Shown: positions 10,901 through 64,000 of the stretch, in pieces
Numbering within the stretch: position 1 is the stretch's first letter
Layout of the letters: the number at the start of each line of letters is the position of its first letter
Origin: Pseudocercospora fijiensis CIRAD86
Taxonomy: Eukaryota; Ascomycota; Dothideomycetes; Mycosphaerellales; Mycosphaerellaceae
DNA length: 64,000 bases
Direction of reading: 5' to 3'
Assembly (NCBI RefSeq): GCF_000340215.1
Contig: NW_006921532.1
Span: 463,844-527,843 of the forward strand
The notes under the pieces: model-generated
Told to the model about the DNA's origin: nothing
What the model saw: the letters and a program-made list of their open reading frames with translations, nothing else
Databases searched by the model: none
Translations under genes and position numbers: made by a program

Positions 10901-11096
10901 ACATAGTGGTAGAGATCTACGAATGCCAAGAACACCGGCTTGCTAACTAATTATAGTGACAGCTGGTAGGAAACTGAAACTCGGTTCTCCGACTGCATAG
11001 CGCGACTTATTGAATAGCACAATAGCCAGGCAAAGCTTATGGGGTAAGCGGGCTAGCTCGAGTTACGAATGCTGACTCCTACTTCTCCAAGGTACA

Positions 11097-31318: not shown

Positions 31319-32092
<774 letters not shown>

Positions 32093-42762: not shown

Positions 42763-42770
42763 GTACTTTG
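42763..42770. repeat. Left 8-bp target site duplication of the hAT element
   Basis: GTACTTTG directly precedes the left terminal repeat and is repeated exactly at 52693-52700. Confidence 0.95.
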
Positions 42771-42790
42771 TAGACCCCGCAGTAGTTCGG
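42771..42790 (+). repeat. Left terminal inverted repeat of the hAT element
   Basis: TAGACCCCGCAGTAGTTCGG, inverted at 52673-52692 with a single C/T difference. Followed by G/T-rich subterminal repeats (GGTTTGCTAAGC occurs twice, near 42805 and 42842). Confidence 0.94.
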
Positions 42791-43117
42791 GTTGGTTTGG
42801 TTTGGTTTGCTAAGCCGAAACTCTAGTTTAGTTTGGGTTGGTTTGCTAAGCAACTACATAAGTAGCTGGTTCGAACTATATAATTTATCGGTTTTTAAGA
42901 AGTGTACGAATGTATACGTAGCTTCAAGCAAGCCCTTTGTAAGACTCAGCAGTGTAGCCGGTAGCGTAGCCGGCATTTTTAGTCCTTAGTACTTATAGAA
43001 TTTTCGAATCCTACTTAGGCTACGTAGTTGTATAAAGGTACTTATATAACCTCAAATCTATAGACAATTAGCTAAGGGCACTAACTAATCAAAAGCACAC
43101 ACACATATAAGGCATTA

Positions 43118-43182
43118 TAGTTCAGTTCGGAAACTGCACTCCTTAGGTATGAATTTCATCCTTTCGTTTACGGTTCAATTCC
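43118..43182 (+). promoter_or_regulatory. Possible RNA polymerase III A and B boxes (tRNA-like relic)
   Basis: TAGTTCAGTTCGG (43118-43130) fits the A-box consensus TRGYNNARNNGG with one base of slack, and GGTTCAATTCC (43172-43182) fits the B box. They are 41 bp apart, within the functional range. A full cloverleaf could not be folded by eye, so this may be a tRNA-derived remnant or coincidence. It lies directly before the 43199 ORF. Confidence 0.3.
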
Positions 43183-43198
43183 CTAACTGCTTAGTAGA

Positions 43199-43738
43199 AT
43201 GTCTTTATCTAGATCTAGGCAGAACTCATCGATTTCCTTAGAAGTCCTCCTCCTTAAGAAGTTTATGCACTTTCCTACCGAACTATTCGACAATATTAAG
43301 TACTAGGATAGCTCCTCCCTCGGTATCGGTATAGTATATAAAAGAGCTATAAGGCAGCTCTATAGAACGTTCTACTAGTCACTCGCTATACTAAGGCCGA
43401 ATGCTAGTTCGTTCCTTAGAACTCTTAGTTATTTGGGAGATATAAAGGGTAGGGCAGGTAGTAACTTCGTATTGCATAAGGAGGTAGAGGCTGCTATAGA
43501 AGAGGCCTTCAACCTATAGAAGATAGTGAAAGATATAGAGGTAGCTATAGGTCTAGGTACCTAGTTGAATTTCTAGTAGGTAGAGTATAAGGATATTTAG
43601 AGGGAGTATTAGGTAGAGTTGCGAAGGCAGGTGTATAATATGCTCTAGAAAATAGGGATAGTGCCTATAACTATGACTATTAGGCTCTTCAACCTTCCTT
43701 ATTTTTCCCTATTTTCTTTTTATAAAAATCTAAACTAA
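43199..43738 (+). pseudogene. Small unknown ORF in the hAT element
   Basis: 180 codons run from an ATG (43199) to a TAA (43736-43738) in one frame, with about nine internal TAG codons attributable to RIP. The readable protein has an amphipathic helical N-terminus, KKFMHFPTELFD, and a Gln/Glu-rich middle with LHKEVEAAIEEAF. No family recognised. It is the only plus-strand frame I could follow in the element, and its surroundings (43000-43200) are less RIP-damaged than the rest. GTAGCCGG clusters flank it at 42953-42976 and 43789-43835. Confidence 0.5.
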
Positions 43739-44032
43739 TACAAATCAACCGGAATGTCTATCTTCTTTTAGTTCTTTGAAAAACCTAGCAGCGTAGCTAG
43801 CAGCGTAGCCGGCAGCGTAGCCGGCAGCGTAGCCGGCCTTTTTACTCCTTAGTACTAACGGGATTTTGGGAGACTTCCATTCCGTACGGCTAATAAAGCA
43901 TACTATACTATATATATATGCTTAGAGAGTATTTAGAGCGCGGTATGTAGCGCCGTATAACAGCGGCTCATTTCGCATATAGAAAAGCTTGTAGACGACA
44001 CTACGAACATCCTTCCTACTAGTATATCTATC

Positions 44033-44717
44033 CTATCTAGTACTATCTCGAATATAGACATTCTAGCCTTTTAGAATCTAATCGAGTGCTTTAAAATCCT
44101 TGTCTATAATCGTTATACGCTTCGCGTAGATAGCTATAAGGTTAACCGCTAAAATAGTATTAGTATAGTCCGAAAAGAGGTAGAAGAGAAACATATATTC
44201 GAAGATACGAACTAGGTAGGCTTCTATAGCCTCTTGAAGGGCGCCTATCGCGGAGGCTTAGAAGCGAAGGTCTATTCTGTAATCCTAGGTAATTTCGCGA
44301 ACAAGTCGTTAGAAAGGAGTTTTGCGGATTAGGAGCTTAGAACTCTTCTAATACTGCCGAATCTCACGGAGGGCTACGGCTAAAGAAGGATTAGTAAAAA
44401 GACAGTAAGAATGCCGGCTACGCTACCGGCTACGCTACCGGCTACAAATAGGACTTACTTCCTAGGCGCTATCGACGCTTCGCACGATTGCTACTAGCAG
44501 CAGAAGCGCTAGTTGTCGTCTTACGTAGAGCCTTGCCCGCCGTTGTCTTACGCGGAGCCTTGCCCGCCGTTGTCTTACGCGGAGCCTTGCTCGCGACGCC
44601 CTTTCTAGTACCGGAGCTAGCGGTAGTAGTAGTAGCTATCTTGCGTTAATGTACTGTACTCGTTCTATTATTTCCGATCTTGTTGCGACCCGTAGAAGCA
44701 CTAGGTCCCTTCTTACG
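44033..44717 (-). pseudogene. Histone H3-like gene 1 in the hAT element, with repeated KAPRKTT tail
   Basis: Two exons are clear on the minus strand. Exon 1 (to 44459) encodes a Lys/Arg/Thr-rich tail with three consecutive copies of a (A)(G/S)KA(P/L)RKTT unit, equivalent to the H3 K9-K14 neighbourhood, ending KRR.RLG. A 79-bp intron (44380-44458; GTAAGT donor, TTTACTAAT branch, TTTAG acceptor) splits the Thr codon of the H3 motif GTVALREI. Exon 2 gives VALREIRQYQKSSKLLIRKT, then the RLVREI, DLRFQASAIGALQEA and AIYAKRITI segments (Q restored at TAG). A 44-nt intron-like insert (about 44149-44192, frame uncertain) interrupts the loop after the alpha-2 helix. The stop is at 44033-44035. The initiating Met is not evident (ACG at the expected site near 44716). 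RIP stops make this copy dead. Confidence 0.88.
44380..44458 (-). other. Intron of H3-like gene 1 containing GTAGCCGG repeats
   Basis: The intron has three GTAGCCGG(T/C) copies 12 bp apart between a perfect GTAAGT donor and a TACTAAT branch point. Its removal restores an uninterrupted histone-fold reading frame, which proves it is a real intron of the ancestral gene. Confidence 0.88.
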
Positions 44718-45304
44718 AGGCGTCGTAACTTAGTTAAGTAGACTCGCTATTATAAAAGTCGTCGAATTGAGGAAAAAAGTGCGTTACGAAGGTATACGAA
44801 GGCGCGCGCGGAGCGAGGGTATTGCGGAGGTAGTAGATATAGAGCGTAGAGGTATAGGTATCGATGCGAAGGTTGAATATAGCGGTAGTATCGCGGTATC
44901 GCTAGGCAATAGAGTGAGCTTCGCGCAAGCCTATATTATAGTAACGTTAGAGCAAGGAAAGAAGGCAGGCACGGCTAAAAAAGGCAGGCACGGCTAAAAA
45001 AGGCAGGTACGGCAGACTTTGAAATATAGCCGGCATATGTAGCCGGTATAGTAATAGGCGAAAGCCTCCTTTTAATAAATAGCCGGCGTGATAATAGTAT
45101 CCTACTATAGTATAGATATTCTTTAGTAATGCCTTTACTAGCTATAGTAATCTTATAAGTAACCTAGGCCTATTGCTAGTAAATATAAGAAATATCAGGT
45201 AGGCTATACTAAACAAGCTAGTCATTTAGCAGGAAAAGGCCTACTACCGTCTCTATATACCGGCTACGAGTGCCGGCTACGAGTGCCGGCTATCGCTCTA
45301 AATT

Positions 45305-46018
45305 CAACTCCGCCCTATCTCGGAGGCTAAGGTACCGAGCGGAAACCCTACAGCTTATATTTACTCGGTTGTCGCGGAGCGCTTATAGGTGAGGTATTAG
45401 AAAAGAGTATAAAAAGTACGAGAAGAGTATCCTAGGATATAGGTCGTAAGTGAATAAGAGTAGCACGCCTAGTTATTTATATAGTACGTTACTCTATACG
45501 ACTAAGAGCCTATATTATCTCGTGCTTCGCTTATAAGACCTCGACTCTACTAATATACTATTATTCTCCTACTCGGTCGCTGTCTCAAATCTTCTTCGAG
45601 TTACCGGACTTAGTGCGTATCTGTAGCTATGCAATAGCGCTACGTATTATAGAGAATCAACTCCGCCGTATCTCGAAGGCTAAGGTACCGAGCGGAAATC
45701 CTATAGCTTATATTTACTCGGTTGTCGCGGAGCGATTACAGGTAAGGTATTAGAAAAGAGTATAAAAAGTACGATAAGAGCATCCTAGGATATAGGTCGT
45801 AAGTGAATAAGAGTAGCACGCCTAGTTATTTATATAGTACGTTACTCTATACGACTAAGAGCCTATATTATCTTATGCTTCGCTTATAAGACCTCGACTC
45901 TACTAGTATACTATCGATCTCCTCCTCGGTCGCTAATACGCTGTCTTAATTCTTCTTCGAGTTGCCGGACTTAGTGCGTATCTATAGCTATACAATAGCG
46001 CTACGCATTATAGAGAAT
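45305..46018. repeat. Tandem duplication of a ~355-bp block
   Basis: Copy 1 is 45305-45657 and copy 2 is 45658-46018. They match throughout, with scattered mostly C/T or G/A differences and an 8-bp insertion in copy 2 near 45940. Frames with only TAG/TAA interruptions exist on both strands, so it may duplicate part of a coding exon; the strand could not be decided. It lies between the two H3-like genes. Confidence 0.9.
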
Positions 46019-46408
46019 TTCTCGTTGAAGTTTCTCTCTCGTAGGCTTGCTATCTGCCTCGTAGTACAGAGGATCAAAGTGCTAATGCTAAAGAATCTCC
46101 TTATAGTTAGGATGCTAGGGCTCCTTAGGACCTTTGTGTTTTAGGTCTAAATAGAGACGTATTATAAACGTTCTATCGCCCTTTCGCTTACTACCCGCTA
46201 GGTCGCGATATGCGAAGAAACTAATCTAAATGTAGCTCGTCTCTATAAGAGCCGGGTAAATATAGACCGCTAGGTTTCTACTTCGTACCTTAGATTTAGG
46301 GACGGCGCGGAGATAAAATTAGAAATGTAGCCGGCACCTATAGCCGGTAAAAGGATGCGAAAATAGGCCTCCTCCTAGGTTAATCTAACGACTAAATACA
46401 ATTTCTAA

Positions 46409-47002
46409 CTAATCCGCTATAAACCGACGCCGAATTTTAGCTAGAAGCTGTATATCTTTATTTTAAAGAGTAACCCGCTTCGTATAGATAGCAAGGAGGT
46501 TTGAAAGCTCAAGCTCGGTTACGAGAAATGCCTCCGTAGCTTCCTAAAGAGCACTAATCGCCTTAGCCGTAAATCGCATACTAGACCGAAAATCTAATGT
46601 AATTTCTCGGACGAGTCGCTAGAAGGGAGTCTTAGGGATTAAAAGCTCGGTCCCTCTTTTGTTTTAGAAAAGCCGGATCTAGCGAAGGGCAATAGTACCT
46701 AGTTTAAAGCGCCGCTTCTTTATCGTCGAGTCCTGCCTTGTTCCCTTTCTTTTAATAGAAAGATAACTTTTCTTCGCGATAGTCTTCGTCCGCCTACTCT
46801 TTTTAGCCTTCTCCTATCTACCTATAGCCTTCTTGTTTTTCGGTACTGTTTTCCGAGGAACCCCCTTCCTTCGTATATACTACGGAGAGCCTTGCTCTTC
46901 CGATATCTCGTTCTCGCTACGGTCTCCCTATACTTAGCTTGCTTTACCCTTGCCCTTTAGCCTCTAAAGATATTTATCTGCGCGTTTAGGCGACGAGGGC
47001 AT
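46409..47002 (-). pseudogene. Histone H3-like gene 2 (strongly diverged, CenH3-like) in the hAT element
   Basis: A single minus-strand frame runs from ATG (47002) to TAG (46409-46411): 198 codons with internal TAG/TAA only. The N-terminal ~95 residues are basic and longer than an H3 tail, with no K4/K9-type motif. The histone fold follows: KKRRFKLGTIALR, an extra two residues in the turn before ELLIPKTPF, RLVREITLDFRSSMRF, AISALQEATEAFLV, and AIYTKRVTL then KDIQLLAKIRR. Divergent tail, loop changes and a diverged alpha-N/alpha-1 region are features shared with centromeric H3 variants, but CenH3 status is inference. A pair of GTAGCCGG repeats lies just downstream (46327-46350). RIP stops make the copy dead. 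Confidence 0.85.
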
Positions 47003-47409
47003 ATCGGTAGGACCTAGAAAATTAATAAGCATATAATCGTAAGGAGACATTAATGCTTCTTGCCTTCTAGAACAAATAGTCTTCTATTAAACCGCCTTAT
47101 TAGGTCATCGTTAGATTCGAATAAAGGATAGTAGCTTAAGGAAGGGGAGGCAGCCGGCTTAGGAAGGCCCGAAGAGCCGAATCCTTAAGGCATATTTGTC
47201 TTTAAGAATATAGGGAAAGGGAAGAAGGAGAGGAAGAGCGAATAGAGAATTAGAAATAGTCCGTAGGTAAGCGGGGTCGGTTGCTATAGCAACTAGTCTG
47301 TTTAGGTCCTAGGAATTCGAAACACATTTCGGACATATGCCGGCTATATACGCCGGCTATATTACCTTATACGTAAACGCTTCGTCTCCTTAAAGCTGCT
47401 CTAAGCCTA

Positions 47410-50400
47410 TATACGTTTCCGCTTCTCGACCCGGTATCGCCTTCTGCCTCCGCCCTCCTCCTCTTCGTTATCGCTAATTAGGGTTTCGCTTAGACTAAAT
47501 TTCGCATTCTCTTCGCGCTCTTAGGTTTCTTCGATCTTAAGGTTTTCTAATTCCTCGATCAACTCCTTTAGTATAATCTTTAGTAACCTGCCTTAGCGAT
47601 TCTAGTAGAGGAGATAGTATCGGAATACTATAATAGATTCGAAGGTAGTAGGCGAGTATGTTCGATTAAAGCGGCCCTAGTAACGAGCGATACTAAAAGA
47701 CCTCTTATAGCCTATGCCTACGCTCGGGATAGCGAGGACGTCCCGAGCGACCGACGCTATCGTTAGAAACTTAGGCTCTAACCGCTGCTATATAGCGAGA
47801 ATATCGTCTCCGAATTCGTCTAGAAGACCGGTAAGATCTAGAGATTATTAGCCCTCTTTCCGAGCCTACGGGTTTGTACTTACTCGCGCGCCGATAGAGA
47901 TCGAACTCTTCTTTATTTACTTTAGTAGTTGCTTCCTCTTCTGCCTCTACTTCCTGCCTACGAAATAGGTATAATGTCGGAGCCTTCTAAACCTTCTTTT
48001 TCTTTATAGGAGCTACATTTAGACTAGTTTCTTTCCGACGCTCGTAGAACATCTTTTCTAGAATAGTCCAGTAATGCTTCGGCTATACCTCGTCCGCCTT
48101 CTATTCCGGCCTCTGCTAGTATATATCCTTTTCTACCGGGTTAAGTAAGCACGCAACGCTATAGATATCCCCGAACGAGTTAAAGGTAGCACTATAATAT
48201 TTATGCAACTTAGTATAGGAGGTGTCTATAGCTTTCGTTATAGCTACTTTCTAGGGAACGCTCTTCCTAGCTAGCTTAGCTACGGTTTCCTCGAGCTCGT
48301 TAAAGAGCTAGTTATAGTACGTAAAGACAAGGTAGATCGTCGGTCCTCGGGTTCTTCTAATCGTAGTAGTAACCTTCGCGTAATGCTTATTAATATCGAC
48401 GAGATACTCTGCTTAGCGCTATTCGGCGGCGGTAAGGCCGAGCTACTTAATACCCTCGGAACTCTAATAGATCTCGAGAGCGGTACGTAAAGTACATCCC
48501 CTCGTAACTATATAGAAAGTCGAATCGAACCGGGTCTTAACGTCTTAGGTAAAACGGAGTGGGCGCTAAGGAGGCCGCTTTTGCTATCGCTTATTCTATG
48601 CGATATTCTAGGCATCGGTTTTAGGGCGCTCGATTAGGTTCTTTTAAATAGCCTCGAATCGGTTATATCTCTATAAGCTCGAGTTCGTATATATTGCTAG
48701 ACGACGAAGCTAGAGAAAAAGAGTTAGAACTATACTAGGTTGCCGGCTATAGGTGCCGGCTACGGACAAAAGTCATACCTTATACAAAACGAGAGCGAGG
48801 CTCTCTGCCTTATCCCGTCTTATTGCTATAATAAGTTTCTCGACTTTCGACTTTGCTTTATCCTTATCTAGGATCTTCTGTTAGTCGTCGTTTAATAGTG
48901 CAATTTTAAGCGTCTTAAAGAGGGCTCGGATCGCGATTTGAACTATATAAGCGAGGTAGGGAAACTTCTATAGGGATGTAACTAGCAACGACGTCGGCTC
49001 CGATTTAATAGGGCTAGGGCTATTAATAGGCTCCTCTTTATCGTTATTATCGTACGTATTGTCGTACGTATCCGGAATCGTAGCGAGCTTAACATTCGGA
49101 AGATTAAGCTAGATTGTAGACCTTATAATCTCCTCTACGCACTCGACCCTATCGATATAATTAGTAATTTCAAAGACATATACGAGTGAATTGTATATAT
49201 AACGCCTTATACAATGTTCGATTATTACTAGCGTTGTCCGTAGTAATCGAGATCAGTTTCGTTGTTACACTAACCCTATCTATTGCCGTATAGACAAGCT
49301 TCGCTATATCCTTACTAGTATAGGAACCTAGAATTTCAGGGAATCCGATTATAAGTTCCTAGAGTTTCTAATCCGAATTGATAAAGTATAGCATAATCGA
49401 GAGGAAGGAGGCTCTTATAGTCCGGCTTAACTAGCTATCGATAGCAATAGCTACTCGGCGAGTATTACGGAGGATCTCCCGAATGTCGTCTAACGTAGCC
49501 TCTTTGTTCTTTTCGAACATAATACGCTAGGTTGTCGCGCCGAGAAATAGGGGAGGGTAGTTTGTAAGATATAGGTATATCTTCTATATAGACTCCCTTT
49601 CGTAGAAGTCTTCCGGAAGACCGTTTGTAGCTAGCATTTCGTTTGCTAGTTGCTTAAAGTCTTCGGGGGAGAAATCGGTAGCCTTTAATCCTAGAGCTTC
49701 CTTAAGCGTAGCCTATAATAATTAGCTAGATCTCTACGGTTGATTTAGGTAGCCGGAATCTGTAGCCGGTAGCTATAGCCGGTAGCTATAGCCGGCATTT
49801 TAGAAGACATACCTCTTTCTAGAACGCTATATCTATATTAACTCTCCTCTCTCCTTAAGATTCCCGACACCGTTTAGAATAGAGATGGTTCGTAGGCGAT
49901 GAGTTCCTATCCCCTAGTTTCGGGTATTTTAAGATTGAACCGTAGAAGTTATAGACAATTACTAGTTAACCTTTAAGTCGAGAAGTCGTATAACGGTGCA
50001 ATACCCCCTCTATAAAGAACTTCTAGAATGTATCCGTTCGCTCCTTACTCCCCTATCGCATCGAGTACTTCCGGAGTTTACACTCCTTCGAACGTAAGTA
50101 TAAAGGGAACTATATCTTATAGACCTATTGATTAAACTGCTCTATATACTCGGGTTTCTAAAGATACGCCTAGCTAGCCTTTTCGAAGATTTCCGGGTTA
50201 ATACTCGATGTTCTTATATCTCCGAATAACCTTCTGCTTAGACTCCGTAAAGGTAAGGACTAGGTAGTAGTACCCTATAATGAATTCCTACTACTAGGAT
50301 TCGGAGAGGATGAATCTAGCCCTAATCGTAGTCTAGGACTCGATAGGCTCGAAGGTGAGTATGCGACCTCCTCTCGACGTTGTCGCAATCTCGCTCGTAT

Positions 50401-50540
50401 ACTAGACTGTTTCGACTGTCGTCTCGTTATTACCCTTCCTAGTGTAGCGCCTAGTGTATATACAATGTCGGTCGGTATGTTTTGAGGTTTCGTACGGTAA
50501 GGTAAGGACTTAGGAGTAGTAGATGTGTACTAGTAGCTGT
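47410..50540 (-). pseudogene. hAT transposase remnant
   Basis: The core is readable on the minus strand: a domain upstream of the second catalytic Asp (IAIDS..., about 49455), SDWKLQELIIGFPEI with Trp/Gln restored at TAGs (about 49395-49350), and TTDNASNN (about 49255-49230), which carries a catalytic Asp of hAT transposases. A C-terminal dimerisation block, LEPKFLTIASVARDVLAIPSV and then SIARY..GRF...TFESI, lies at about 47775-47640 and corresponds to the hATC domain. Introns occur at 48710-48778 (69 bp, GTATGA, TTCTAAC, CTCTAG) and about 49734-49812 (GTATGT donor). The N-terminal part (about 49815-50540) is less clear and no zinc finger was resolved. RIP stops make it dead. Confidence 0.87.
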
Positions 50541-50603
50541 AGAGAAACACCCTTTCTTTTATAGCATCGTATCGTTAGGAACAGCTAGGCAGTAAATAGC
50601 TAG

Positions 50604-50715
50604 CTACCTTTTTTTTTTGTTTCCTAGCTACCTAACTACTAGATTTTTTTTCCTAGCTACCCTAGCTAGCCTAACTACTAGAATTTCTTTCCTAGCCACC
50701 CTAACTACCTAAATT
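50604..50715. repeat. Degenerate CCTAGCTACC repeats with T-tracts
   Basis: Several copies of CCTAGCTACC and CTAACTACTAGA alternate with T-tracts, in the spacer between the transposase and the upstream unknown gene. This is a likely promoter/terminator spacer of the element. Confidence 0.55.
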
Positions 50716-52135
50716 TTGCCTTCTATACGGCGGCTCTCTCCTACTAACGGAACCGAGCTACTGTACCTAACGAATCCAAGCTCGTTTTTAGTCTCAATCT
50801 ATCCTCTTTCGGCATAAGACACTCGATAAGCAAATGCTTAGGCCGAGTCTAACTACGAAACCCAAGACTAACTAATAGCTCTATTAACTAATCCTAATCC
50901 TCGAACTCCTTCCGCTTCTTAGTAAAGACCTTAAAGAGCGCTCGAGCTTCTTCGGGTGCCTACGGAGTAGTCGAGATAAAGCCGTATCGCTGAAATAGGT
51001 AATCCTTCGGAGGCTTATATAGAGATTTAGAGAATTCTAACGCTAACCTATCCTACTAGCAGCTTAGATTCCGGATACAAGCCCTCTCTGCCTTAGTAAA
51101 GATTTTATATAGCAGTAGCACTCTGCCTTCGAGAAACGCTTTCTGTTTAACTGTTAGTATCTGCCGGCTACGAACGCCGGCTATATATACCGAGCATAGA
51201 ATAATTACCTGTACCCCTTCCTCCTATAGTAACACTTCTGCCGTCCCTAGATACCTAGCCCCGATCGCATTAATCGCAAGCTACTTTGCCTTTATAGACG
51301 CAAAGGCTTCGCTCTAATACTAATAAAGAAACTTCTACTCTATATCGAGGATATAAAGACGACTAGTCTCGATTCCAATCCTTGCTAGCTTTTCGTAGTA
51401 GCTTTGACTATGATTTTCTAGATTAATAGGACTTATACCTTAGCCCTTTACTAGTATCTCGTCTCTTTAACTGTACTCGATCTACTCCTAGCGCTTATCG
51501 TCTATAGCGTTAGGCCCTAAGACTACACCTATTACTAGATCGACGTATAGTATCTCCTCGCTTTTTTCAGTTCCTTTATTCGTAGTATTAAGCTCTGTCG
51601 CGGCATCCTAAACTCTAGCATTATTGTTCTCGGCTATCTAAACATCTCCGTTACTATCGGTCGTATCGATAGAGGTAGCGACTATAGGTCTGAATGCTAT
51701 TAGTTAACGTATTAAAGAAAAATATGCCGGCTACAGCTGCCGGCTACGGCTGCCGGCTATAACTGCTAGCTACGGCCGCTAGCTAGATTGACTTACGCTG
51801 CTAGAACTTTACGCTCGAAAACTAGCCGCAATTCTTTCCTCCTCTTAGCCTTCTCTTAGATTGTCTTCTTATTCTAACCTTCACTTTTTTCTATAGGCGC
51901 TAGCTATCGATAGAATGCCTTATTCCGCGCCTTTCTTCTCTTATCCTTAGCTCTTTTATCCTTATCTATCTTGTCCTTTCTCTCGCGGTCTCGTACGGAA
52001 TTCTTCTTCGTAGAGTACTCCTCTTTAGTCTTGCGCTTTTTAGTTAGACGCTTAGGCAAAACAAACTCGCGGTCTTTAGTTCTATCTTCTGTTTAGCGCG
52101 CGGCGCGCTTCTCTCTTGCTATTATAAGGGAAAGG
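50690..52135 (-). pseudogene. Unknown Lys/Arg-rich protein gene in the hAT element
   Basis: Three exons are readable on the minus strand. Exon 1 (about 52135-51797) is extremely basic (KRLTKKRKTKEEYSTKK, DRERKDKIDKDKRAKDKRRK) and could bind nucleic acid. A 100-bp intron (51697-51796) has a GTAAGT donor and a GTTAAC-TAATAG 3' end. Exon 2 (51696-51209) contains YVDLVIGVVLGPNAIDDKR and a Tyr-rich helix with KLARIGIETSRLYILDIE. A 66-bp intron (51143-51208) has a perfect TACTAAC branch point. Exon 3 (to about 50700) has KDYLFQRYGFIS. No family recognised. Both introns contain GCCGGC repeats. RIP stops make it dead. Confidence 0.55.
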
Positions 52136-52256
52136 GGCGGGGGCGCAGCGTATAGTAGTTATTGTCGGTATAGGTATAGAGGAAGAAGTTGAAAGTGTAA
52201 GAATATCGTAAAGCCTTAATTGTTGCCGCCTACGTAACGTTATATAGGTGAGCTTT

Positions 52257-52556
52257 CGCAACTACGGTAACTACGCCCCGGCAATAGCAACTACGCCCTA
52301 GCAACGGCAACTACGCCCTAGCAACGGCAACCACGCCCTAGCAACGGTAATAAAGCGTAGTAAATACAACCTAGTAACTATTATAGCCGGCAATCGTAGC
52401 CGGCAGTCGAATAAGAGTGTCCTTGTAGTAAAACCACGCCCTAGCAACGGCAACTACGCCCTAGCAACGGCAACTACGCCTAGTAAATGTAACAGAGTTA
52501 CTATTATAGCCGGCAATCGTAGCCGGTAGTCGAATAAGAGTGTCCTTATAGTAAAA
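52257..52556. repeat. Subterminal tandem repeats at the right end of the hAT element
   Basis: About seven copies of a ~19-bp unit (CAACTACGCCCTAGCAACGG) lie in two clusters, embedded in a ~130-bp block present twice (about 52330-52435 and 52460-52556). Each block holds a pair of GTAGCCGG repeats and a TCGAATAAGAGTGTCCTT string. Such arrays near an end are plausible transposase-binding sites. Confidence 0.8.
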
Positions 52557-52672
52557 CTAATATAGTCTCTAGTTTAAACTAGGAATCTATATAGTTCGAA
52601 AAAACCAAACCGGAACTAGGGAGCTAGTTCGCCGCTAAGAAACCAAACTATATACGTTTAGTAGTTCGGAAA

Positions 52673-52692
52673 CCGAACTACTACGGGGTCTA
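52673..52692 (-). repeat. Right terminal inverted repeat of the hAT element
   Basis: Reverse complement of the left end with one transition. Followed immediately by the target duplication at 52693-52700. Confidence 0.94.
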
Positions 52693-52700
52693 GTACTTTG
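52693..52700. repeat. Right 8-bp target site duplication of the hAT element
   Basis: GTACTTTG, identical to 42763-42770. Removing the element and one copy rejoins the minus-strand ORF of the host repeat. Confidence 0.95.
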
Positions 52701-53149: not shown

Positions 53150-54426
53150 GTCGGCAAATGAACCCTAAATTATGCTATCACGTGCAATTCGAACCAATTC
53201 ACCACCGCGGAACGTAATCCTTAATGCACAAAGGCCTGAACGGAGGTAGCTGTCGACCCCGACCTTTCACTCTTATTGCCTTAAAGACAACATGCCATCT
53301 CGCAAGGAAGCTGAGAGCGAAGTGAGGTCGTGGGGCTTCAACCACGTCTTCACATGGTCTGGTAGAGTAACAGAGATGATATCCACTGCCCATTGCTAAC
53401 CACAACATCCGTGCTTGTAGATGGGCCGTAAGTTCATAAGACCACAGCATTGGGCTGGAGCTGATACGCAAGAGAAATGCCTACTACTCTCCTCACCGAC
53501 ATGCCGGGCTCACGACCCATTTGATCCTCGATGGCGAGTTGACGATCACATACCCTGATGATGCGAAGCCAACGAAAGAAACATTTGGTCCAGGGGCGCG
53601 AGTAGACGTCGATGCAAACAGAAAGCACGAAGTGGTGCGTTACCCTTCCTCCGACAGCAGCTAGCATGAGCTGATCTTGGCTCAGTGGATGGGCAAGGAG
53701 GGCTGTACTTATGTGATTGGAGAATAGAGTGGATTGCGATAGGGAGAGACGTGTGCAGAAGACAGAACATGCAAGATCCATGAGATACATGAACAAATGA
53801 TTGATGATTCTTCCTGCATTCTGTTGGAACAGAACAGAAGCCCTAGGAGTGTGTTCACACGATGACCGGACAGTTGAGAGCGTTAGCTGCCGGGCGACGG
53901 CGCGAGTTGGCTGCCGAATTCAAGAGCTGAGAATCGTTGGCTCAAAAGTGCGAGGGCTATTGATAATGCTGCTCCTATCTGTCGTAGCAACGCAGGAGCA
54001 AAATGTCTAATAGACAGCGGAGGGTTCTGCTAGCTGGGGGATTTTGTTTGGCAACATTGTCCCACCAGTGCTTCAATCTTCCGCGTGTGATTCGTACGGA
54101 CGAGTTCACATGCTTCGCGCATTCTTCTGACTGACCGCACTCCCTCACTTTCGTTGCCACGGCACTGGCGCTATTTCTCATGCGACGCACGGCCAACTCA
54201 ACTTCCACTTCCACTTCCACTGCCGAGACTCCAGAATTCAGCATTTCCAAAAGCCTCGACCGTCGCGACTTCCTCTCCGCAGAACGAGGTGTGACAAAGC
54301 GCCTGCCTCAGCTAAACGGTTGACGTTGACCTACCTTCATCTTCGACTTCGCCGCGATACACAAACACAACATCCACAGCAACCATCATAACTACATCCC
54401 TCGCTGGATGCAAACATTCCTTCGAG
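53150..54426. other. Intergenic region at the repeat border, upstream of the Arg/Ser-rich gene
   Basis: Normal base composition returns near 53150. Overlapping minus-strand frames (53199-53796) show no domain. CACAAACACAACATCCAC-like leader sequence precedes the start at 54427. A CTTCCA repeat occurs near 54200. No gene supported. Confidence 0.45.
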
Positions 54427-56940
54427 ATGGTGCCGCCACCCACCAACACCTACTACTGCATACCACCGCCACCATTGCCGGAATTTTACGACAGTAGCAC
54501 TCGACGACCGCCTCCATTGCTTGAGTCTGAGACCACCATAACTTCAAGACCGGCGGCAATGGCTGCGAATGGTGCCGACCGTGGGTGGCGCTACGTCGAC
54601 ATCAAGAAGACTACGAGGACGCCAGCATCCTCGCCTTCAGCTGCTCGAGACCGCGACGTGCCTCCACTCGCCGTATACCACATCTGTCGAATCTGCCTTC
54701 GACCCAGAAGTGAGCGGTATCATCGCGACCATCCCATCCCGGCCGATGGTGTGCCACCGCCTCCGGGTATTTGCAGAAGATGCCGGGTCGCACCAGCAGA
54801 AGATCTCCAAGATGTCGAAGAGGTCACTAAGAAGCGCGAGAGCAACGTGATTCGAGTGGGTGTAGGATGCTTGGTGCCTGATGAGGACGCCTTCACGAAA
54901 TCCGAAATGCGCGACACACGCGCTCGTCGTGCCATGAGCGAGGCTACCTACGCCGAACTCGAGCCAGTTCGAGATCGTAATACAACGATCTATGAAACCG
55001 CCTGCCCTATAAAATGCGACCCAAGCCCACCGAGAGAACGAGAGGAGACCATTTATCGTCACATTCATGAAGTCATCCCACCGCGTCCCCTCCGATCGCC
55101 TGTCCGACAAGCACCAGCATATACCGCACAGGATTTTTCTGGTGCTGCCGAAGCTTCTCTTGCGCAGCAACAGGTTATCGTGGATGCAGATACTTACGAA
55201 GCCACAGCTGGCTCATCGCCCTGGACGAGATCAATCCGAATACCGCCACCGCCGCCTTCAAATGCACGTCAGGAGTTGCTGCGTTCGGAGCTCGTAGACT
55301 GCCAGCAAGAGCGTCAGGCGTCGACACGGCGCAGCGTTTCTAGTCGGCGGCTTCCAACAGGGTTTACGGAAGCTGATCAGACTAAGACGTCTGCAGCCAC
55401 TCAATCGTCAACTTCAACATCAAGTTCCTCATCATCAAGTTCTTCGTCATCAAGTTCTTCATCATCTAATTCTCAGCCACGAGAGCGATCGGAGGCAGAG
55501 ATTCGTAGACTCGCTAGAGACGAAGTCGAGCGGTATCGTCGCTTGGAGCGAAAGTTGGAGAAACATCCAAGTCCATATGCGCATGGCAGAATGGTCGAAG
55601 TCAAGAGAGTTCCAGTCGAACGTCGAATCGAGCTTGAGAAGGACATCCCTGTGCAGATGCCTTGGTCCCGGCCAGAACTAGGACGAAAAGACTCCCGACT
55701 GGAACCTGAGCGGGAGATTGAAGAAGTGGTCATCGAACGCAGCCGCAAACAGGATAAGCCAACTATGCGTGAAGTACCCTTGCCGGATTCGAGCACCTCA
55801 TCTGGTTCATCAAGCACTTCATCTGAGAAAACGCGCTGGCCAACAGCGGCATACGAACCGTCAGCGAGACCACGCCAAGGTCAAGTTAAGTCAGGTTCCG
55901 AACGAGTCAAGATGGTTGTCGAGCAGAAAAACCAGGTCTCCGCGGAGATCAGAACAAAAGGAAGCTTGCCATATCCTGAGGATGAGCGCTCTCTTGCCGC
56001 TACCATGCCTTCGCCTACCTCGCATGTCTCACGCTCAGGACGCACATCGAAGGCGGCGACTAGTCGCAAGGATGATGGCGAATACGAGTACGTGGTGCGC
56101 AAGGTGCAATCATATAGTCGATCACCAACACGCGGACGCTACGATCAGCGTGAGACGACCGAACGATACGTACATCGCACTAGGCCGGGAGAAGAAGGCG
56201 TATTACCAGAAGCGACTGCTAGCAACCAGCGAGGTCGCCGTCCAAGTGATGCCTCTAGTCGAGTGCACTTCTCTAAGAAGGTTGAGATCTCGCCAACGCC
56301 ACCGAACAGTAATGCAAGCTCTCGAGAGTTCCGCGACTTCGCTCGGCGGAGAAAAGGGAGTCGAGAACGTAAGGAGGATCTGATAGCAGAGTATGAGCGT
56401 AGGGGCCGCTTGCGTAACCGAGATACCTATCTCGTCGAAGATGACCGGGACCGCACGCCTCGCCCGGGTCGGAGCCAGCGGGAGCGAGAAGATGATGCTC
56501 CTGAGTCCTCAACGACATCCTCATCGACGTCCGAATCGAAGTCTGATGAGAGTGCCGATGTTGACGATCAACGTGAGATGCGGAGGCGCGCACCCATCAG
56601 GGGAAGTTCACGAAGAAGGCTACCTGACGATCTGACGCGACGATCACGCATTGACGATGATCTTCTTGTCTGGGATGGGAGCACGAATAGTGAAGACAGC
56701 GAGGAATATGTGCAAGAGGCAGACTATCGACAATGGCGAGCGAAGTAGGACAATCCGTCATCAAGAAGGAGGTCACAAAGTGCGGTGCCATACAGATACA
56801 TCCGTTATCCGGCTGACTCGCGGCGGAAGTATGAAACGCGAAGTAAGCAGAAGAAGAAGCAAAAGAATGGATTCTTGGTCGATACCGGGGAGCTGATGAT
56901 GAAGGGGGCGGGGGAACTGATGAACATCCACTGGGCTTGA
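54427..56940 (+). CDS. Arg/Ser-rich protein with a Cys-Cys motif; probable 51-nt intron near the 3' end
   Basis: Exons 54427-56744 and 56796-56940 give 820 aa if the 51-nt intron 56745-56795 (GTAGGA...ATACAG) is removed. If it is not, an in-frame TAG at 56746-56748 ends the protein after 773 aa. The downstream 63 codons remain open with the same basic codon character (KYETRSKQKKKQKNGFL...) to a TGA. Near the N-terminus, residues 84-120 hold C87, C90 and C116, C119 around a conserved-looking HRDHPIPADG stretch, a likely zinc-binding motif. The middle has a poly-Ser run (~325-345) and the rest is rich in Arg, Glu and Ser, mostly disordered. Function unknown; a related filamentous-fungal family is likely. 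Confidence 0.65.
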
Positions 56941-57852
56941 GATAGCTTGGACTATTCTGATTGTGGATGTTTGGTCAATGAGCCTTCTAACCTGAGAATA
57001 TTTACGACAGCCTGCTGAAATGAAACCTCAGTATATTTATGAACCCTCTCAAAATTCTCGACCGCCATTGGGGTGGTCTCGTGGTAGCAGTCTACGCAAG
57101 TATCCTTTGCACCTCCGTAAACGCTGCAGCTGACAATCCAATCCGTCCAGAATCTATCGCTTCTTCCTGACTCCTAAACCTCACTATCATTTTTTTTCTT
57201 TTCACAATAACCATCATCTTTGAAAAAAAAACCAATCAACTTTTGTTTTCTTTATCAGTCAAGAGATGCATTCCTCTACGCCAAACCCTCTATGCTTCAT
57301 ATAGATTAAAAGCCTTTGTGTCTCCATTTAGTAAAAGATCTTGAATATACGTGCTCTAGAGGAACGATGACTTCGCCGCTACCGTTATTAAGAAGCGTTC
57401 TTCCTATTCTCAGCCACGTCTCTTACATACCGCCTGGATCGAAAGTTATGAGAGCTAAGGGCTTCGGGAAGGGGCTTTTTGCTCCCTAAAGCGTTTTTAG
57501 AACACACAGCCTAGAAGGTCGAGATATTAGAGCTAGATCTCGTCAACGAGAAGTCTGAGAGAGAAGTGCTTGCTATTTTAGTTAATGTTGTTATCTAAAC
57601 GGATCAAGATTTACTATCTAGCTAGGTGTTAGAGGTTGGTCGTGACTGGAACACGGTCAAGGGATACAACCATTTTAGGCGCCTTCATCATTGATTTCGA
57701 AGGCCCGGTATCCTTCAACAGCGCCTCGCCGACCTAGATTTTTTCGCAGCGCAAGAAAGTACTGGCTAGAGCAAGCGTTCGTGGCACTGCATTCCATATT
57801 CGCTCTGATACTGCTATACCTGATTTTGGCAAGCCTACTAGGCATTGTCATC
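56941..57852. other. Intergenic, with a decayed fragment near 57400-57640
   Basis: T/A-rich tracts at 57190-57245 suit a 3' region. From about 57400 to 57640 a frame with TAG interruptions (KVMRAKGFGKGLFAP start, then a Glu/Leu-rich stretch) recalls the opening strand of a SET domain, but too little remains to assign it. Confidence 0.3.
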
Positions 57853-59154
57853 TCATCTCGACTCTGGTATTTTCATCTCGTACTCCGGAAGTGGAAATTT
57901 GGAATCACTCGCAATGTTCGCAAACTTCCACACTCCGCTCCAGGCAATGAACCAGAACACGGTCCTAAGAGTGCTGATGCCCCAACTTGACTGTGGATTG
58001 AGCAGGGCTGGTGCTTTGCCGCCAAGTGGGATTTTTTGAGTCTTCTTTATAAAGTCCTTGAGCAAAGCGTGGTGTTTTTCAAATGCAGTATTCGGATCGT
58101 CGGGGTTGGCAGCAAGCTCGCCAGCGATGATGTAGGCTCCAAGAATGGCACATAATGTCCCAGCGCCGGTCACTCCACTTGGGGCGTACGCTGCATCGCC
58201 GACTAGGGCACATCGTCCGTTATGCCACTTGTCAAGCTTGATCTGAGCGGTTTGAACGAAGTAGAAGTCCTGGGTCTTTTGCATCTCTTCGATAATGCGA
58301 GGTGCAAGTGGCCCTGGGAAGTCTGCAAATGCTTCGGCTAATGCTTTCTTTTGCTCATCTTTCGTGCCATCAGCTACAGCTTTCAGCTTTTCATCCGGGA
58401 CTGTCTGGATCGCATAGCCAGACACCTTTTTGGTCTTCTCGTCGACAGGCCTCACGATTATCGATCTGCCCTTGGTCGCATGCTGCCACCTTGAATTCGG
58501 AAAGTCTTCTGAAGTACCAGTAATCGAGAAGAAGGCACCACATTGGTCGACGGGCCTGAAAGCCTTAGCGCTCGTCTCTGGGTCGAATATCATATCGCGA
58601 AGCCGCGATTTCACGCCATCTGCGCCGATCACCGCAGCAAACGACTCCGTCTTCCCATCATCGGACAGCACCACAGTGACATCCTTCTCAGTCTGACGAA
58701 GCTCAGACACCGTGCATCCATACCGATATCTCACATTCGGTATGCTACCAGCGGCTTCTGCTAAGATCTTGGAAAGCTTCCCGCGCGTGATCTCGATCTC
58801 TTGTGTCAGACTCAAGCTCTTCCATCCTTCTTCTGCCTTCGCTGCTTGGCTCGCTACTGGTAAGACGGCAACATTCGTGGAATCTTCGTTTAAAATAGCG
58901 AAGCCCGCCTCTCCGGTCGTATTTGCCCTGATCTCTTGCTCAACTCCCATGCGTTTGACAATGTCTAAGGCCGGTCCGGTGATGTCAATGCCCTGGCCGT
59001 ATGCGAAGCGAGATGTGGATCGTTCTGCTACTGTTACGTCGAAGCCTGCCTTGCCTAACCAAAAAGCTGCTACTGAGCCGGCCGGGCCACCGCCTATGAT
59101 GAGAATGCGGCGCGAAGTTGGTGCCATGGACGCGGTCTGTATGATTATCTCCAA
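57853..59154 (-). CDS. FAD-dependent monooxygenase (class A, PHBH fold)
   Basis: 433 aa from the first Met; the Met at residue 10 (59127) is the more likely start because it directly precedes the FAD-binding strand. GGGPAGS (21-27) is the dinucleotide motif, followed by the conserved acidic residue after the second strand (VAERS). RGKLSKIL is the conserved Arg region. DGVKSRLRD is the DG motif and CALVGDAAYAPSGVTGAGT (~320-340) is the GD motif. These are the marks of flavoprotein hydroxylases acting on aromatic or polyketide substrates with NAD(P)H and oxygen. The substrate is unknown; no biosynthetic cluster surrounds it. A hydrophobic stretch near the C-terminus (FWFIAWSGVWKF) could be membrane-associated. 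Confidence 0.85.
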   Translation of the reverse strand: MEIIIQTASMAPTSRRILIIGGGPAGSVAAFWLGKAGFDVTVAERSTSRFAYGQGIDITGPALDIVKRMGVEQEIRANTTGEAGFAILNEDSTNVAVLPVASQAAKAEEGWKSLSLTQEIEITRGKLSKILAEAAGSIPNVRYRYGCTVSELRQTEKDVTVVLSDDGKTESFAAVIGADGVKSRLRDMIFDPETSAKAFRPVDQCGAFFSITGTSEDFPNSRWQHATKGRSIIVRPVDEKTKKVSGYAIQTVPDEKLKAVADGTKDEQKKALAEAFADFPGPLAPRIIEEMQKTQDFYFVQTAQIKLDKWHNGRCALVGDAAYAPSGVTGAGTLCAILGAYIIAGELAANPDDPNTAFEKHHALLKDFIKKTQKIPLGGKAPALLNPQSSWGISTLRTVFWFIAWSGVWKFANIASDSKFPLPEYEMKIPESR

Positions 59155-60058
59155 ATGAATAGTGCTTGTATTACCGGGTTATGGGTATTGGCAATGCCGT
59201 CTCGCGGCCATCTGCCATTTTTATGTATGCCATTGTCTGAACTCGAAAGCCCGTACGGCGAACTCTCACCGATCCAATATGTCATATACGGCGAACAATT
59301 GCGGCCCCTTCGCCGGATTTAAGCTCCTCGATCGTCATTGTTGACGATCGATCCTACCAGAAGCCTGGTGACTGGTGAAGCGTCGATGGGCTGGCTGGGT
59401 GCTCTGCCTGACGTTCTTTAGAAAGTACGGGAGCACTTTGGCACATTGTGTGCAACTATTATTTTTTGTTGGAAAAAGCGACTAGAACCTTCGCTATTAT
59501 AATATAGATAAGCATTGTACTATATCTATACTCCACTATATCTGAGATACCAAAACTAAGAATTATTTAACTATAGAAAGTACTAGTATTATTTACTATA
59601 AAATACTAGTAGATACAATTTAGAAGCTATACGCGATTTATAAGTAGTATATAACTCTAGTGAGATTATTTTGTAATAGCTATATTTAAAAGTCAGCTAT
59701 AAATCTAGTAAAGATCCGAAGTCGAGAGTCCTAGGATAGATAATAGCCTAGTATATCCTTATTACTTAAAAATCTAGTAACAATATACAGCTACATAGAA
59801 AGTAAAATAGCAATTCTATCTATAACTCTTATGATATACTAGTGTTTGATAGTATAGCGCCGTTAGGAAGGGCGTGAGAAACCCCCGCTCCTAGCGTCCA
59901 GGCCCTTTTGCATGCCACTAGCTTGTGTACGTCTTGGCAGTTTTTCAAATAGCAACCGCCAACATCAAGTCTATTGAGAGATGAACAGTCCAATGGCAGC
60001 CGCCAGCAAGTAACATCTTTTTCCCACATAAGAAGCTCGTCCGACCAGATGATGGCAG
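59155..60058. other. Intergenic with a RIP-like AT-rich relic
   Basis: The first ~300 bp are of normal composition. From about 59460 to 59860 the sequence becomes strongly TA-rich and CA-poor like the large repeat blocks, with no readable frame. It is a short decayed repeat, possibly a solo element. NPR3 starts 200 bp to its right. Confidence 0.5.
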
Positions 60059-62089
60059 ATGGCGCACGCGAAGCACGCGCCGAGTGGCTCTGGTCTCGTC
60101 GCTGTGCTTCTGATCACACGTTCGCGCCCTGGTCCCAAATTGGTCTTCCATTGCCCGGAGCGACCACACTTGCCGCCAAAGCGCAGGCGAAGAGATGATC
60201 CTGACTCCGACGACAGTTCAGAGTCTGAAGACGATGAAGATGAGAAGGCGTCTGAAGTGACCGCCAAAGGCAATAATCCTATCGCAGCACCGATGAAAGG
60301 CAATCGATATGTGCTGCCTGACGAAGCAAATCCAGATCTGAAGGACGACAATATAATTGATGGTGCGTCAAAAGTCTTGGGCCACTCTGTAGAAAGCCTG
60401 GAGAAAGTCCTTTCGCCAGGAAGATGGAGCGATCGGAAGAAATTTGAAATTAATCTCGATGGTCTCAATTTCCTTGGTCACCCTATATATGCAGCCGAAG
60501 ATGGACTTTGGGGTCCAAGCCGTTCGGGTCATTCGGCGCTAAAGGCGCCTGAGAAGTCTGGGAGTAAGGACAATCAGGATGCATTGGACCTGGACATTGA
60601 CGGTCTTAACCTCACTTCACCAAAACCTCCCAGCACGAATCACGGCCGAGATCGTGACTTTACACATTTTCCCGACAGCCTTGACGCGCAAAATGATCTT
60701 CCATTTGGCACTTCAGTGGAGACAACGTCGAGCGCGGATTCAGGGAGCCAGATCGAGCAAATCAACATGTTCCAGGTCGTGTTCGTGACGCGTGGAGCTG
60801 GACCACCAGCGCAGAAGGAGGCTAAGAGTATCTACAGCGATGTTGCCAAGAGATTGAACGAAGCCCTCGAATACTGTCAGCGGCAAGCAGACTATGTTGC
60901 AAGAGAGAGCAGAATGCTGCTTACCATGCGCTCTAAGCAGAAGGATGATCATTATATCGACGGAGCCAACCTTTGGCAGCGAATGGTGGAAGGAAGTGAG
61001 CTTGCTTGGGCACTCAAGGAAGTGTTTGAAAAGATCTCGACCGGGAACGTGGCTGGAATCCGACTTAACGGCATGAATATGAGTCTCCATCTCGAAAGCT
61101 TGGCCAAGGATCCTTGCTTCAAGAAGGCCGAGCTCGGGCCGCTGTCTGCATTGTTGCTACTTGAACCCAAGGAGATACTCCTACGAGAGCTTGCTCATCC
61201 AGACGCCAGTCTTCTGGCCACGTTCATCCGTGAATGTACTCCTGCAAAGAACCTCACCAAAAAAGCTTTACATCTCAACATTTCACTGCAGGAAGTACTT
61301 CACATGAGTTCGCATCTGGTCAAATGGCGCAAAGCTCAAGTCTTATCACAGCCACTCAATGCTCGAAATACGTACGTGGTCTCGCCAGATGCTCCTCTCC
61401 ATGACTTGGAGCAGCACATCTCTGCCTACCACAAGCTGTTCCCGACGCTACCGAACCTACCCAACATGCTCAAAGTGTTGAGTGGTCGACCTATCAAGTA
61501 TGGACTGCTTATACCAAGTAGGGACCACAGAACTGCATACATGGACATCTTGTCATACCTTGTTCGGCATGGTTTTGTTGTGCAATTGAGAACATATGGC
61601 TGGTTGAAGATCTCCAAAGGGGTACTGGACAGAGCTAAACCAAGAGAACTACCACTAACGAGAACACCTGTTGCTGCGCGCGGTCTGCTATCGCCACGAT
61701 CCCGCGCCGTGGACGAAGACGCTGTCAGTGTGACCTCCGATCGTACAGCTGTAGCTTCACCATCGACGATATCGAGCAGAGATGGAAAGAGGCTCAGCTC
61801 AGGCACACAGGTGCCCGTGTCCGATGAGTCAAAACCGAAAGATGATTTTGTCATTGTCTTAAAGCCCACAGAGCCTAGTGATGCGGAAGCGAAACTTTTG
61901 ATTGCCTTGCGGGCGACCTTTGGGGATGGCGAAATGAAGGACTATTTCGATGCTCTTCTAAAGTATTTCGATGGCGAACATGCATTTGAGGAGATTGCAG
62001 CACGAGAAGGACTGAAAAGGGCGCGGGTTGAGGAATGGCTTGCGGAGTTGGACGCCAACGACCATCTCATGACTGTACGGTATATTTGA
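60059..62089 (+). CDS. npr3: Nitrogen permease regulator 3 (GATOR1/SEACIT subunit)
   Basis: 676 aa, one exon. The N-terminal longin-like strand GLVAVLLITRSRPGPKLVFHCPE is characteristic. An acidic insertion (DPDSDDSSESEDDEDE) and a long linker follow, then NPR3 hallmark segments: LGHSVESLEKVLSPGRWSDR, KKFEINLDGLNFLGHPI, INMFQVVFVT, the helical region with VAKRLNEALEYCQR, and a C-terminal winged-helix-like part ending DANDHLMTVRYI. NPR3 with NPR2 and DEPDC5/Iml1 inhibits TORC1 on amino-acid starvation at the vacuole membrane. The start codon gives the complete longin domain. Confidence 0.92.
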   Translation: MAHAKHAPSGSGLVAVLLITRSRPGPKLVFHCPERPHLPPKRRRRDDPDSDDSSESEDDEDEKASEVTAKGNNPIAAPMKGNRYVLPDEANPDLKDDNIIDGASKVLGHSVESLEKVLSPGRWSDRKKFEINLDGLNFLGHPIYAAEDGLWGPSRSGHSALKAPEKSGSKDNQDALDLDIDGLNLTSPKPPSTNHGRDRDFTHFPDSLDAQNDLPFGTSVETTSSADSGSQIEQINMFQVVFVTRGAGPPAQKEAKSIYSDVAKRLNEALEYCQRQADYVARESRMLLTMRSKQKDDHYIDGANLWQRMVEGSELAWALKEVFEKISTGNVAGIRLNGMNMSLHLESLAKDPCFKKAELGPLSALLLLEPKEILLRELAHPDASLLATFIRECTPAKNLTKKALHLNISLQEVLHMSSHLVKWRKAQVLSQPLNARNTYVVSPDAPLHDLEQHISAYHKLFPTLPNLPNMLKVLSGRPIKYGLLIPSRDHRTAYMDILSYLVRHGFVVQLRTYGWLKISKGVLDRAKPRELPLTRTPVAARGLLSPRSRAVDEDAVSVTSDRTAVASPSTISSRDGKRLSSGTQVPVSDESKPKDDFVIVLKPTEPSDAEAKLLIALRATFGDGEMKDYFDALLKYFDGEHAFEEIAAREGLKRARVEEWLAELDANDHLMTVRYI

Positions 62090-63309: not shown

Positions 63310-64000
63310 ATGGCGTACGACGACCTACTCAAGCTCATTGAGTCGCTTCCAACGGACCAATGGGGTCCACCAACCACGACCGAAACGACCCTCAATGGCG
63401 TTCCTTACGCCCCCTTCTCCAAAGGCGACAAGCTAGGCCGTATGGCGGACTGGACAGCGGAGGGCAAGGACCGTGAGGGACGTGGCGGAAGGCAACAGTT
63501 CAATAACCGATACCGCGACCAGATTTACGGTGCCGGTCCAGGCGGTCTGCAGACTGCATTCGCGATAGAAGGAACGAACGAGGAGAACACATTCAGCCTT
63601 GTCGACCGCACACAGCCAACGCGCTCAAGAGGCTTCGGCGGACGTGGCAGCGCTGTGTTTGGCCGGGGTCGCGGTGGACAGCGTGGAGCAGCCAACCAGC
63701 GCGGAGGCAGAGGCACTTTCACCCGAGTGCAGGGAAGAGGCGGACAGCAGTATAACGACCGCGGTGGCCGAGGTGGACGCAGAGGCGGTAGATTCGGCTG
63801 GAAAGACTATGACAAGCCACAGCGCAACCGTGAAGCATCTGTCCAACCAAAGGATACCTGGCGCGTGTTGGAGGAGATCGACTTCAGTCGTCTCTCCAAG
63901 CTCAATCTCGATACTGGCGAAGGCGAGGACCTCGACGACTATGGTTTCCTCTACCACTACGACCGCTCATACGACAAACAGCCAGGTGCGCCGACTTCTG
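63310..64000 (+). CDS. eif3d: Eukaryotic translation initiation factor 3 subunit D (5' part, runs off the window)
   Basis: The first ~230 residues are present. [14 protein letters not shown] then WGPP and [16 protein letters not shown] open the protein as in other eIF3d proteins. A Gly/Arg-rich RGG-like region (residues ~95-175: [25 protein letters not shown]) is the RNA-binding segment, and [20 protein letters not shown] and [14 protein letters not shown] lead to the cap-binding domain. eIF3d contacts the 40S subunit and the cap of selected mRNAs. No intron occurs in the visible part; the gene continues beyond 64000. Confidence 0.95.

What the first reader, a model, noticed from the sequence alone, without database searches (positions are those of the whole stretch)
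42771..52692. A 9.9-kb hAT transposon with a gene cargo, defined by TIRs and an 8-bp duplication
The 20-bp ends match with one difference and are flanked by GTACTTTG on both sides. The transposase core and dimerisation domain are readable inside. hAT elements usually carry one transposase gene; this one appears to carry at least four further frames, including two histone H3 genes. I know of no described hAT with this cargo, but that is from memory.
Basis: partly seen in the sequence, partly recalled or inferred. Interest (0 to 1): 0.9.

Follow-up and report, generated by a model that had tools for sequence, protein, structure and literature searches.

The report
Known histone-carrying hAT transposon, mutation-killed copy
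This is one stop-ridden copy of a high-copy jumping-gene family that carries two different histone H3-like genes and is almost certainly one already published from a banana pathogen; new details suggest that the histones were likely working parts of the element rather than a chance copy of the host's gene.

Summary
In detail: 42771-52692 has 20-bp inverted ends (one difference) between GTACTTTG duplications, an insertion-free version of its site exists elsewhere, and two histone H3-like genes lie inside.

It is no chance nesting. The ends occur 965 times (control 16). The H3 segment has 412 candidate places; the 40 scored are full length at 98-100%. Of 150 histone matches scored, all but two host genes carry stops.

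It is not new. Dhillon et al. [quoted passage not shown] That this is that genome is inferred.

Added here: the two H3 genes are distinct paralogues; one keeps introns, against the published intronless-transcript capture, and this likely explains a reported 16-residue insertion. Both recur in a complete sister element. Transversions, which RIP does not make, show weak coding constraint on the two folds together (p 0.028). An intact metagenome protein resembles one of them.

The parts
42763..42770 (.). left 8-bp target-site duplication GTACTTTG
   Evidence: empty site
42771..42790 (+). left 20-bp terminal inverted repeat
   Evidence: family count
43199..43735 (+). gene F, unknown; stop-ridden frame (end approximate)
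   Evidence: 382 candidates, 40 scored full length 97-100%; no Pfam; absent from the sister element
44093..44735 (-). gene H3-D: exon blocks 44735-44459, 44379-44197, 44148-44093 (outer ends approximate); introns 44458-44380 (79 nt) and 44196-44149 (48 nt)
   Evidence: PF00125 E 4.2e-29; frames; introns; host comparison
45300..46357 (-). region E, unknown reading region containing a tandem duplication (spacing 353-361 bp)
   Evidence: no Pfam; single in some copies
46412..47002 (-). gene H3-C: H3-like, no intron, long basic tail
   Evidence: PF00125 E 1.1e-24; 412 candidates (query 46400-47000)
47393..50529 (-). transposase gene in five exon blocks (50529-49812, 49733-49176, 49147-48779, 48724-47882, 47862-47393; inner borders partly approximate)
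   Evidence: sub-threshold Dimer_Tnp_hAT E 0.031; third-position excess of transversions; 138 of 138 scored copies of one block with 18 or more stops
50752..52122 (-). gene A, unknown, three exon blocks (52122-51790, 51697-51205, 51148-50752)
   Evidence: conserved in the sister element; no Pfam
52264..52557 (.). subterminal tandem repeats (20-bp and 123-bp units)
52673..52692 (-). right 20-bp terminal inverted repeat
52693..52700 (.). right 8-bp target-site duplication GTACTTTG

Best explanation
This is one stop-ridden copy of a high-copy transposon family with 20-bp inverted ends and 8-bp target duplications that carries two different histone H3-like genes; it is almost certainly the hAT family published from Pseudocercospora fijiensis, likely moved by cut-and-paste and was likely inactivated by RIP. 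A transposase from an intact ancestor would have bound the ends, excised the element and inserted it elsewhere, leaving the 8-bp duplication (the duplication is shown, the rest inferred). Transposase, gene A, H3-C and H3-D travelled together through at least two subfamilies (shown). Near-identical copies then likely spread and were hit by RIP, so that every scored copy has stops. Before that, the H3-like proteins were likely translated and kept by weak selection; I think that they entered, or competed with, host nucleosomes so as to ease silencing of the element, a step that nothing here tests (about 0.35).
For: Ends, duplication and empty site; copy number; histone domains; stops in all scored copies other than two host genes; among the 30 best-scoring copies 58 of 58 variable allele pairs are transitions, 33 in CpA/TpG context; at 8 varying stop positions unhit copies read Q at 7 and R at 1. 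Both H3 genes lie in all 4 copies held whole: window, C1:1984016, C1:8185935 and the sister element at C12:614177-622775. Transversion test: transposase p 0.0004, both H3 folds together p 0.028. Match to the published family in length, end length, duplication, H3 number and place of the host H3.
Against: The transposase reaches no Pfam cut-off and had no match in the protein search. Two of nine end pairs have unmatched flanks. The published end sequence could not be compared (figure not held). Coding constraint is weak: neither H3 fold alone (p 0.12, 0.092) nor gene A (p 0.054) is significant, the tails show none (p 0.59, 0.95), and H3-C against host H3 shows none (p 0.31). Gene F and region E are not kept in the sister element. 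No scored copy can make these proteins now.
Confidence: 0.8

Rival explanations
1. Passive transduplication, as published: the hAT picked up a host H3 transcript by chance and the cargo was merely carried along, with no role, until RIP destroyed it.
For: Published reading. H3-C has no intron. Coding constraint on the H3 genes is weak and absent in their tails. Capture of genes by DNA transposons is well known.
Against: H3-D keeps introns, one of them 3 nt from a host intron and in the same phase, so it is not an intronless transcript. H3-C and H3-D are only 60% alike over the fold and recur together in a sister element. Third-position excess for the two folds together.
Confidence: 0.5
2. The intron-like stretches of H3-D are not introns but insertions or chance splice-like sequence.
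For: The 48-nt stretch is a multiple of three and is read through in frame in the window copy. Its consensus donor is kept in only 3 of 12 copies. It has hardly any RIP target dinucleotides, so its conservation needs no function.
Against: Taking it out gives H3 length at that place (alignment). Branch and acceptor signals are kept in 12 of 12 distinct copies, sister element included. The first stretch is 79, 91, 91 and 103 nt, always 1 modulo 3, in the 4 copies held, so the frame needs it removed. GCCGGC arrays lie outside the listed exons in 24 of 24 cases, though I partly used them in spotting introns.
Confidence: 0.12
3. Chance nested insertion: cargo from unrelated DNA within a hAT.
For: The region is dense in repeats, and nested copies do occur (L024-L026, L037).
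Against: 30 of 30 H3-C loci cut out continue into the transposase gene; hundreds of candidates; 16 end pairs 9,385-9,998 bp apart among the 100 listed places.
Confidence: 0.01

Closest known systems
Histone H3-carrying hAT family of Pseudocercospora fijiensis and relatives (Dhillon et al. 2019, PMC6710886)
   Same: 9.5-9.9 kb, 20-bp ends, 8-bp duplication, one or two H3-like copies, hundreds of copies, all RIP-inactivated, original H3 on scaffold 6 (here contig C6).
   Different: Paper: intronless transcript captured, unexplained 16-residue insertion, no other domains or direct or inverted repeats. Here: introns in H3-D, further reading regions A, E and F, tandem repeats, and a complete 8.6-kb sister element.
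H3L-carrying hAT of Pyrenophora tritici-repentis (Manning et al. 2013, PMC3538342)
   Same: A hAT with transposase, an additional ORF of unknown function and an H3-like gene that is neither H3 nor CenH3.
   Different: 5.6 kb, one H3L gene, near-identical mostly intact copies with ESTs. Dhillon et al. report no sequence similarity of the elements; not tested here.
[quoted passage not shown]
   Same: Fungal DNA transposons, hAT among them, that carry a chromatin- or methylation-related extra gene.
   Different: An enzyme acting on methylcytosine, not a histone; the hAT families there make 7-bp duplications.

Membership tests
hAT superfamily | 8-bp target-site duplication | tested here: met
hAT superfamily | short terminal inverted repeats | tested here: met
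   20 bp, one difference; 965 occurrences
hAT superfamily | hAT transposase with C-terminal dimerisation domain | tested here: inconclusive
   Dimer_Tnp_hAT E 0.17 and 0.031, under the cut-off; no protein match; motif reading is recalled
H3-hAT family of P. fijiensis | length 9.5-9.9 kb, 20-bp ends, 8-bp duplication, two H3-like domains | tested here: met
   9,922 bp; two domains; published values
H3-hAT family of P. fijiensis | hundreds of H3-like copies, RIP-inactivated, one intact H3 on scaffold 6 | tested here: met
   772 PF00125 candidates, 150 scored; host H3 on C6
H3-hAT family of P. fijiensis | letters of the published end sequence | not testable with these tools
   in a figure and a supplement that are not held
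H3-hAT family of P. fijiensis | H3-like copies without introns (published inference) | tested here: not met
   true for H3-C, not for H3-D
Ptr H3L hAT | sequence relation of transposase or H3L | not testable with these tools
   no Pyrenophora genome on hand; no such name among the 120 rows listed of 1,174

The most novel reading that the evidence does not exclude
The two H3-like genes are not a captured housekeeping gene but built-in genes of a multi-gene hAT lineage: transposon histones that evolved under selection as chromatin modifiers in the element's own service, with an old H3-C family whose intact relatives still live in other organisms.
Probability: 0.35. Interest if true: 0.75.

Novelty: already known. 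Interest (0 to 1): 0.35.

Why it matters
The element is in print, so the discovery claim falls. What remains is a correction and a test: one of the two H3 genes keeps introns, and the pair recurs in a second subfamily, which argues against one capture of an H3 transcript. If transposons keep histone genes because these help them against silencing, this family and the Pyrenophora one make that testable, since RIP leaves transversions as a record of earlier selection.

Tried and rejected
The whole-element DNA search had too many candidates to score; shorter pieces were used. The first literature search missed the key paper; the second found it. Protein searches with the transposase found nothing at E 0.001; the first used a 281-residue piece, which leaves out full-length relatives by length. 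P0061 (Bimuria), a named Dothideomycete hit for H3-C, groups with the host CENP-A and was dropped. P0001 groups with H3-C at 91/95 on long branches, so attraction of long branches is possible; its source organism is unknown. Ten of the 120 proteins were left out of the tree because my pattern did not find their fold start. The H3-C fold was first counted in a wrong frame and redone. The 30 copies are the best-scoring ones, so their likeness is partly chosen. Genome searches for the 373-bp derivative and for gene A did not complete, so those counts are missing. No structure was predicted.
Full report
What is there. The window is C1:463844-527843 of an unnamed 73.9-Mb genome in 30 contigs. The stretch 42771-52692 lies in a strongly RIP-marked block (GC 0.43, TA/AT 1.8, (CA+TG)/(AC+GT) 0.42). 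Its ends are 20-bp inverted repeats with one difference, between two copies of GTACTTTG. The flanks joined without the element, with one copy of the 8-mer, match over exactly 300 bases at C2:3358109 (95%), C7:2265698 (87%) and C6:4322711 (86%) among 33 scored places, so the element sits in a copy of another repeat and duplicated 8 bp.

It is a family. The end pattern with up to 3 mismatches is found 475 + 490 times, against 10 + 6 for the reversed control. Among the 100 places that one search lists, 16 neighbouring pairs are 9,385-9,998 bp apart and 4 pairs span 373 bp (my count from the listing). Of nine end pairs held as loci, six have identical 8-bp flanks (one of them spans 27 kb with another copy inside), one has 7 of 8, two do not match. 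The H3-C segment has 412 candidate places; the 40 scored are full length at 98-100%, the window's own included. Gene F has 382; the 40 scored are full length at 97-100%. These are the best-scoring copies, not a random sample. All 30 H3-C loci that were cut out run on into the transposase gene by more than 500 bp. Copies without cargo exist too, as 373-bp derivatives with the same ends.

Gene content. On the minus strand from the right end: gene A, transposase, H3-C, region E, H3-D; on the plus strand near the left end, gene F. Pfam finds histone domains in H3-C (E 1.1e-24) and H3-D (E 4.2e-29), a sub-threshold hAT dimerisation match in the transposase (E 0.031), and nothing in A, E or F. Calling it hAT therefore leans on the 8-bp duplication, the ends, motif reading (recalled) and the published annotation.

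The scored copies are dead. Each of 138 scored transposase blocks, of 417 candidates, has at least 18 stops. Of 150 histone matches scored, of 772 candidates, two lack stops: by reading, the host H3 on C6 and the host CENP-A on C5. Among the 30 best-scoring copies over 601 bp around H3-C, 58 of 58 variable allele pairs are transitions, 33 of them in CpA/TpG context, and each copy has 9-12 stops. At the 8 stop positions that vary, unhit copies read Q at 7 and R at 1. No transversion among these 30 suggests a recent spread followed by RIP, with the caution that they were chosen by score.

It is published. Dhillon et al. 2019 (PMC6710886; I saw the outline, text parts 1-3 of 7 and the Discussion) describe in Pseudocercospora fijiensis a hAT of 9.5-9.9 kb with 20-bp ends, 8-bp duplications and one or two H3-like copies, 784 H3-like copies in 471 elements, all inactivated by RIP except the original H3 on scaffold 6, and similar events in five further genomes of Cercospora, Pseudocercospora and Sphaerulina. 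Our genome fits: 73.9 Mb against 74 Mb (PMC13041039, passages), 772 PF00125 candidates, host H3 on contig C6. Manning et al. 2013 (PMC3538342; passages and section 20 part 1) describe another H3-carrying hAT in Pyrenophora tritici-repentis. The name P. fijiensis for this window is my inference.

What the parts of that account that I read do not say. First, H3-D has introns. One, of 79, 91, 91 and 103 nt in the four copies held, with the same splice signals, lies 3 nt from host H3 intron 2 and in the same phase. The other, 48 nt, has branch site and acceptor in 12 of 12 distinct copies and a consensus donor in 3 of 12. Forty-eight nt equal the 16 residues that Dhillon et al. report as an insertion in the second copy, which they put down to a mutation before amplification; I think that it is this intron. 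H3-C has none. The inference of a captured intronless transcript thus fits H3-C at best.

Second, H3-C and H3-D are separate paralogues: 60% identical to each other over the fold, 58% and 68% to the host H3, 55% and 58% to the host CENP-A (gaps and stops left out). Third, they recur together in all 4 copies held whole: the window, C1:1984016, C1:8185935 (the last has unmatched flanks) and a complete sister element at C12:614177-622775 (8,599 bp, TTTACTTC on both sides). The sister has transposase, gene A, H3-C and H3-D at 74-91% identity per 250-bp window over most of their length, but no alignable gene F or region E.

Fourth, RIP makes transitions only, so transversions between the two subfamilies record earlier selection. 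Counts at codon positions 1/2/3: transposase 37/26/59 in 909 codons (p 0.0004); both H3 folds together 11/7/18 in 178 codons (p 0.028); H3-C fold alone p 0.12, H3-D fold alone p 0.092, gene A p 0.054, tails p 0.59 and 0.95. Against the host H3, H3-D shows the excess (10/7/17, p 0.033) and H3-C does not (23/16/23, p 0.31); H3-C against H3-D gives p 0.091. This is suggestive, not strong, and uncorrected for several tests.

Fifth, of 1,174 protein matches to H3-C (best 120 listed), the top one, P0001, is an intact 164-residue protein from an unplaced metagenome contig of 1,189 bases, 48% identical over 77% of the query. It alone among the 120 has the H3-C type loop or C-terminal end, and it groups with H3-C at 91/95 in a tree of 116 rows with many unresolved forks and long branches. 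This supports no more than that an H3-C-like histone may exist intact somewhere.

How it likely worked. A transposase would have cut at the ends and pasted the element elsewhere with an 8-bp duplication (duplication shown, the rest inferred from hAT elements in general). The H3-like proteins, with basic tails and a changed C-terminal part of the fold in H3-C, would have entered or competed with host nucleosomes. That this helped against silencing is the mechanism that I commit to, at about 0.35; passive carriage is at least as likely, and nothing here tests the step. Other fungal DNA transposons carry chromatin-related genes such as TET/JBP dioxygenases (PMC12730594, passages). In the six searches of the held open-access library I saw no paper that reports introns in these H3 genes or treats them as selected transposon genes; listings beyond the papers named were not opened.

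Verdict. The introns of H3-D, the sister element and the transversion record are additions worth passing on.

Noticed in passing
42771-52692, for example 43788-43837, 44414-44445, 49750-49795, 51725-51776: Short GCCGGC minisatellites sit in introns and spacers: 24 GCCGGC in the element, 0 in 5,787 listed exon bases, 12 in the other 54,078 bases of the window. They come in clusters, so the 24 are not independent.
   Followed up: partly
L034:1501-1873 and L037:1501-1873: 373-bp derivatives with the same ends and no cargo; the one in L037 sits inside the transposase gene of another copy, with 7 of 8 flank bases alike. A genome count did not complete.
   Followed up: partly
L031/L032 (C1:8185935-8195496): A full-length copy whose two 8-bp flanks do not match, perhaps recombined.
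   Followed up: no
L028:1-1520: A left end only 84% identical to the window copy, perhaps a third subfamily.
   Followed up: no
L070 (C5:606200-606900): Intact host gene that reads like CENP-A, interrupted by an intron within the fold.
   Followed up: no
1-11000 and 32000-53000 against 12000-32000 and 54000-64000: The window alternates between RIP-marked AT-rich blocks and GC-balanced blocks.
   Followed up: no
44149-44196: The 48-nt H3-D intron differs less between subfamilies than the exons beside it; it has hardly any RIP target dinucleotides, which may be the whole reason.
   Followed up: partly
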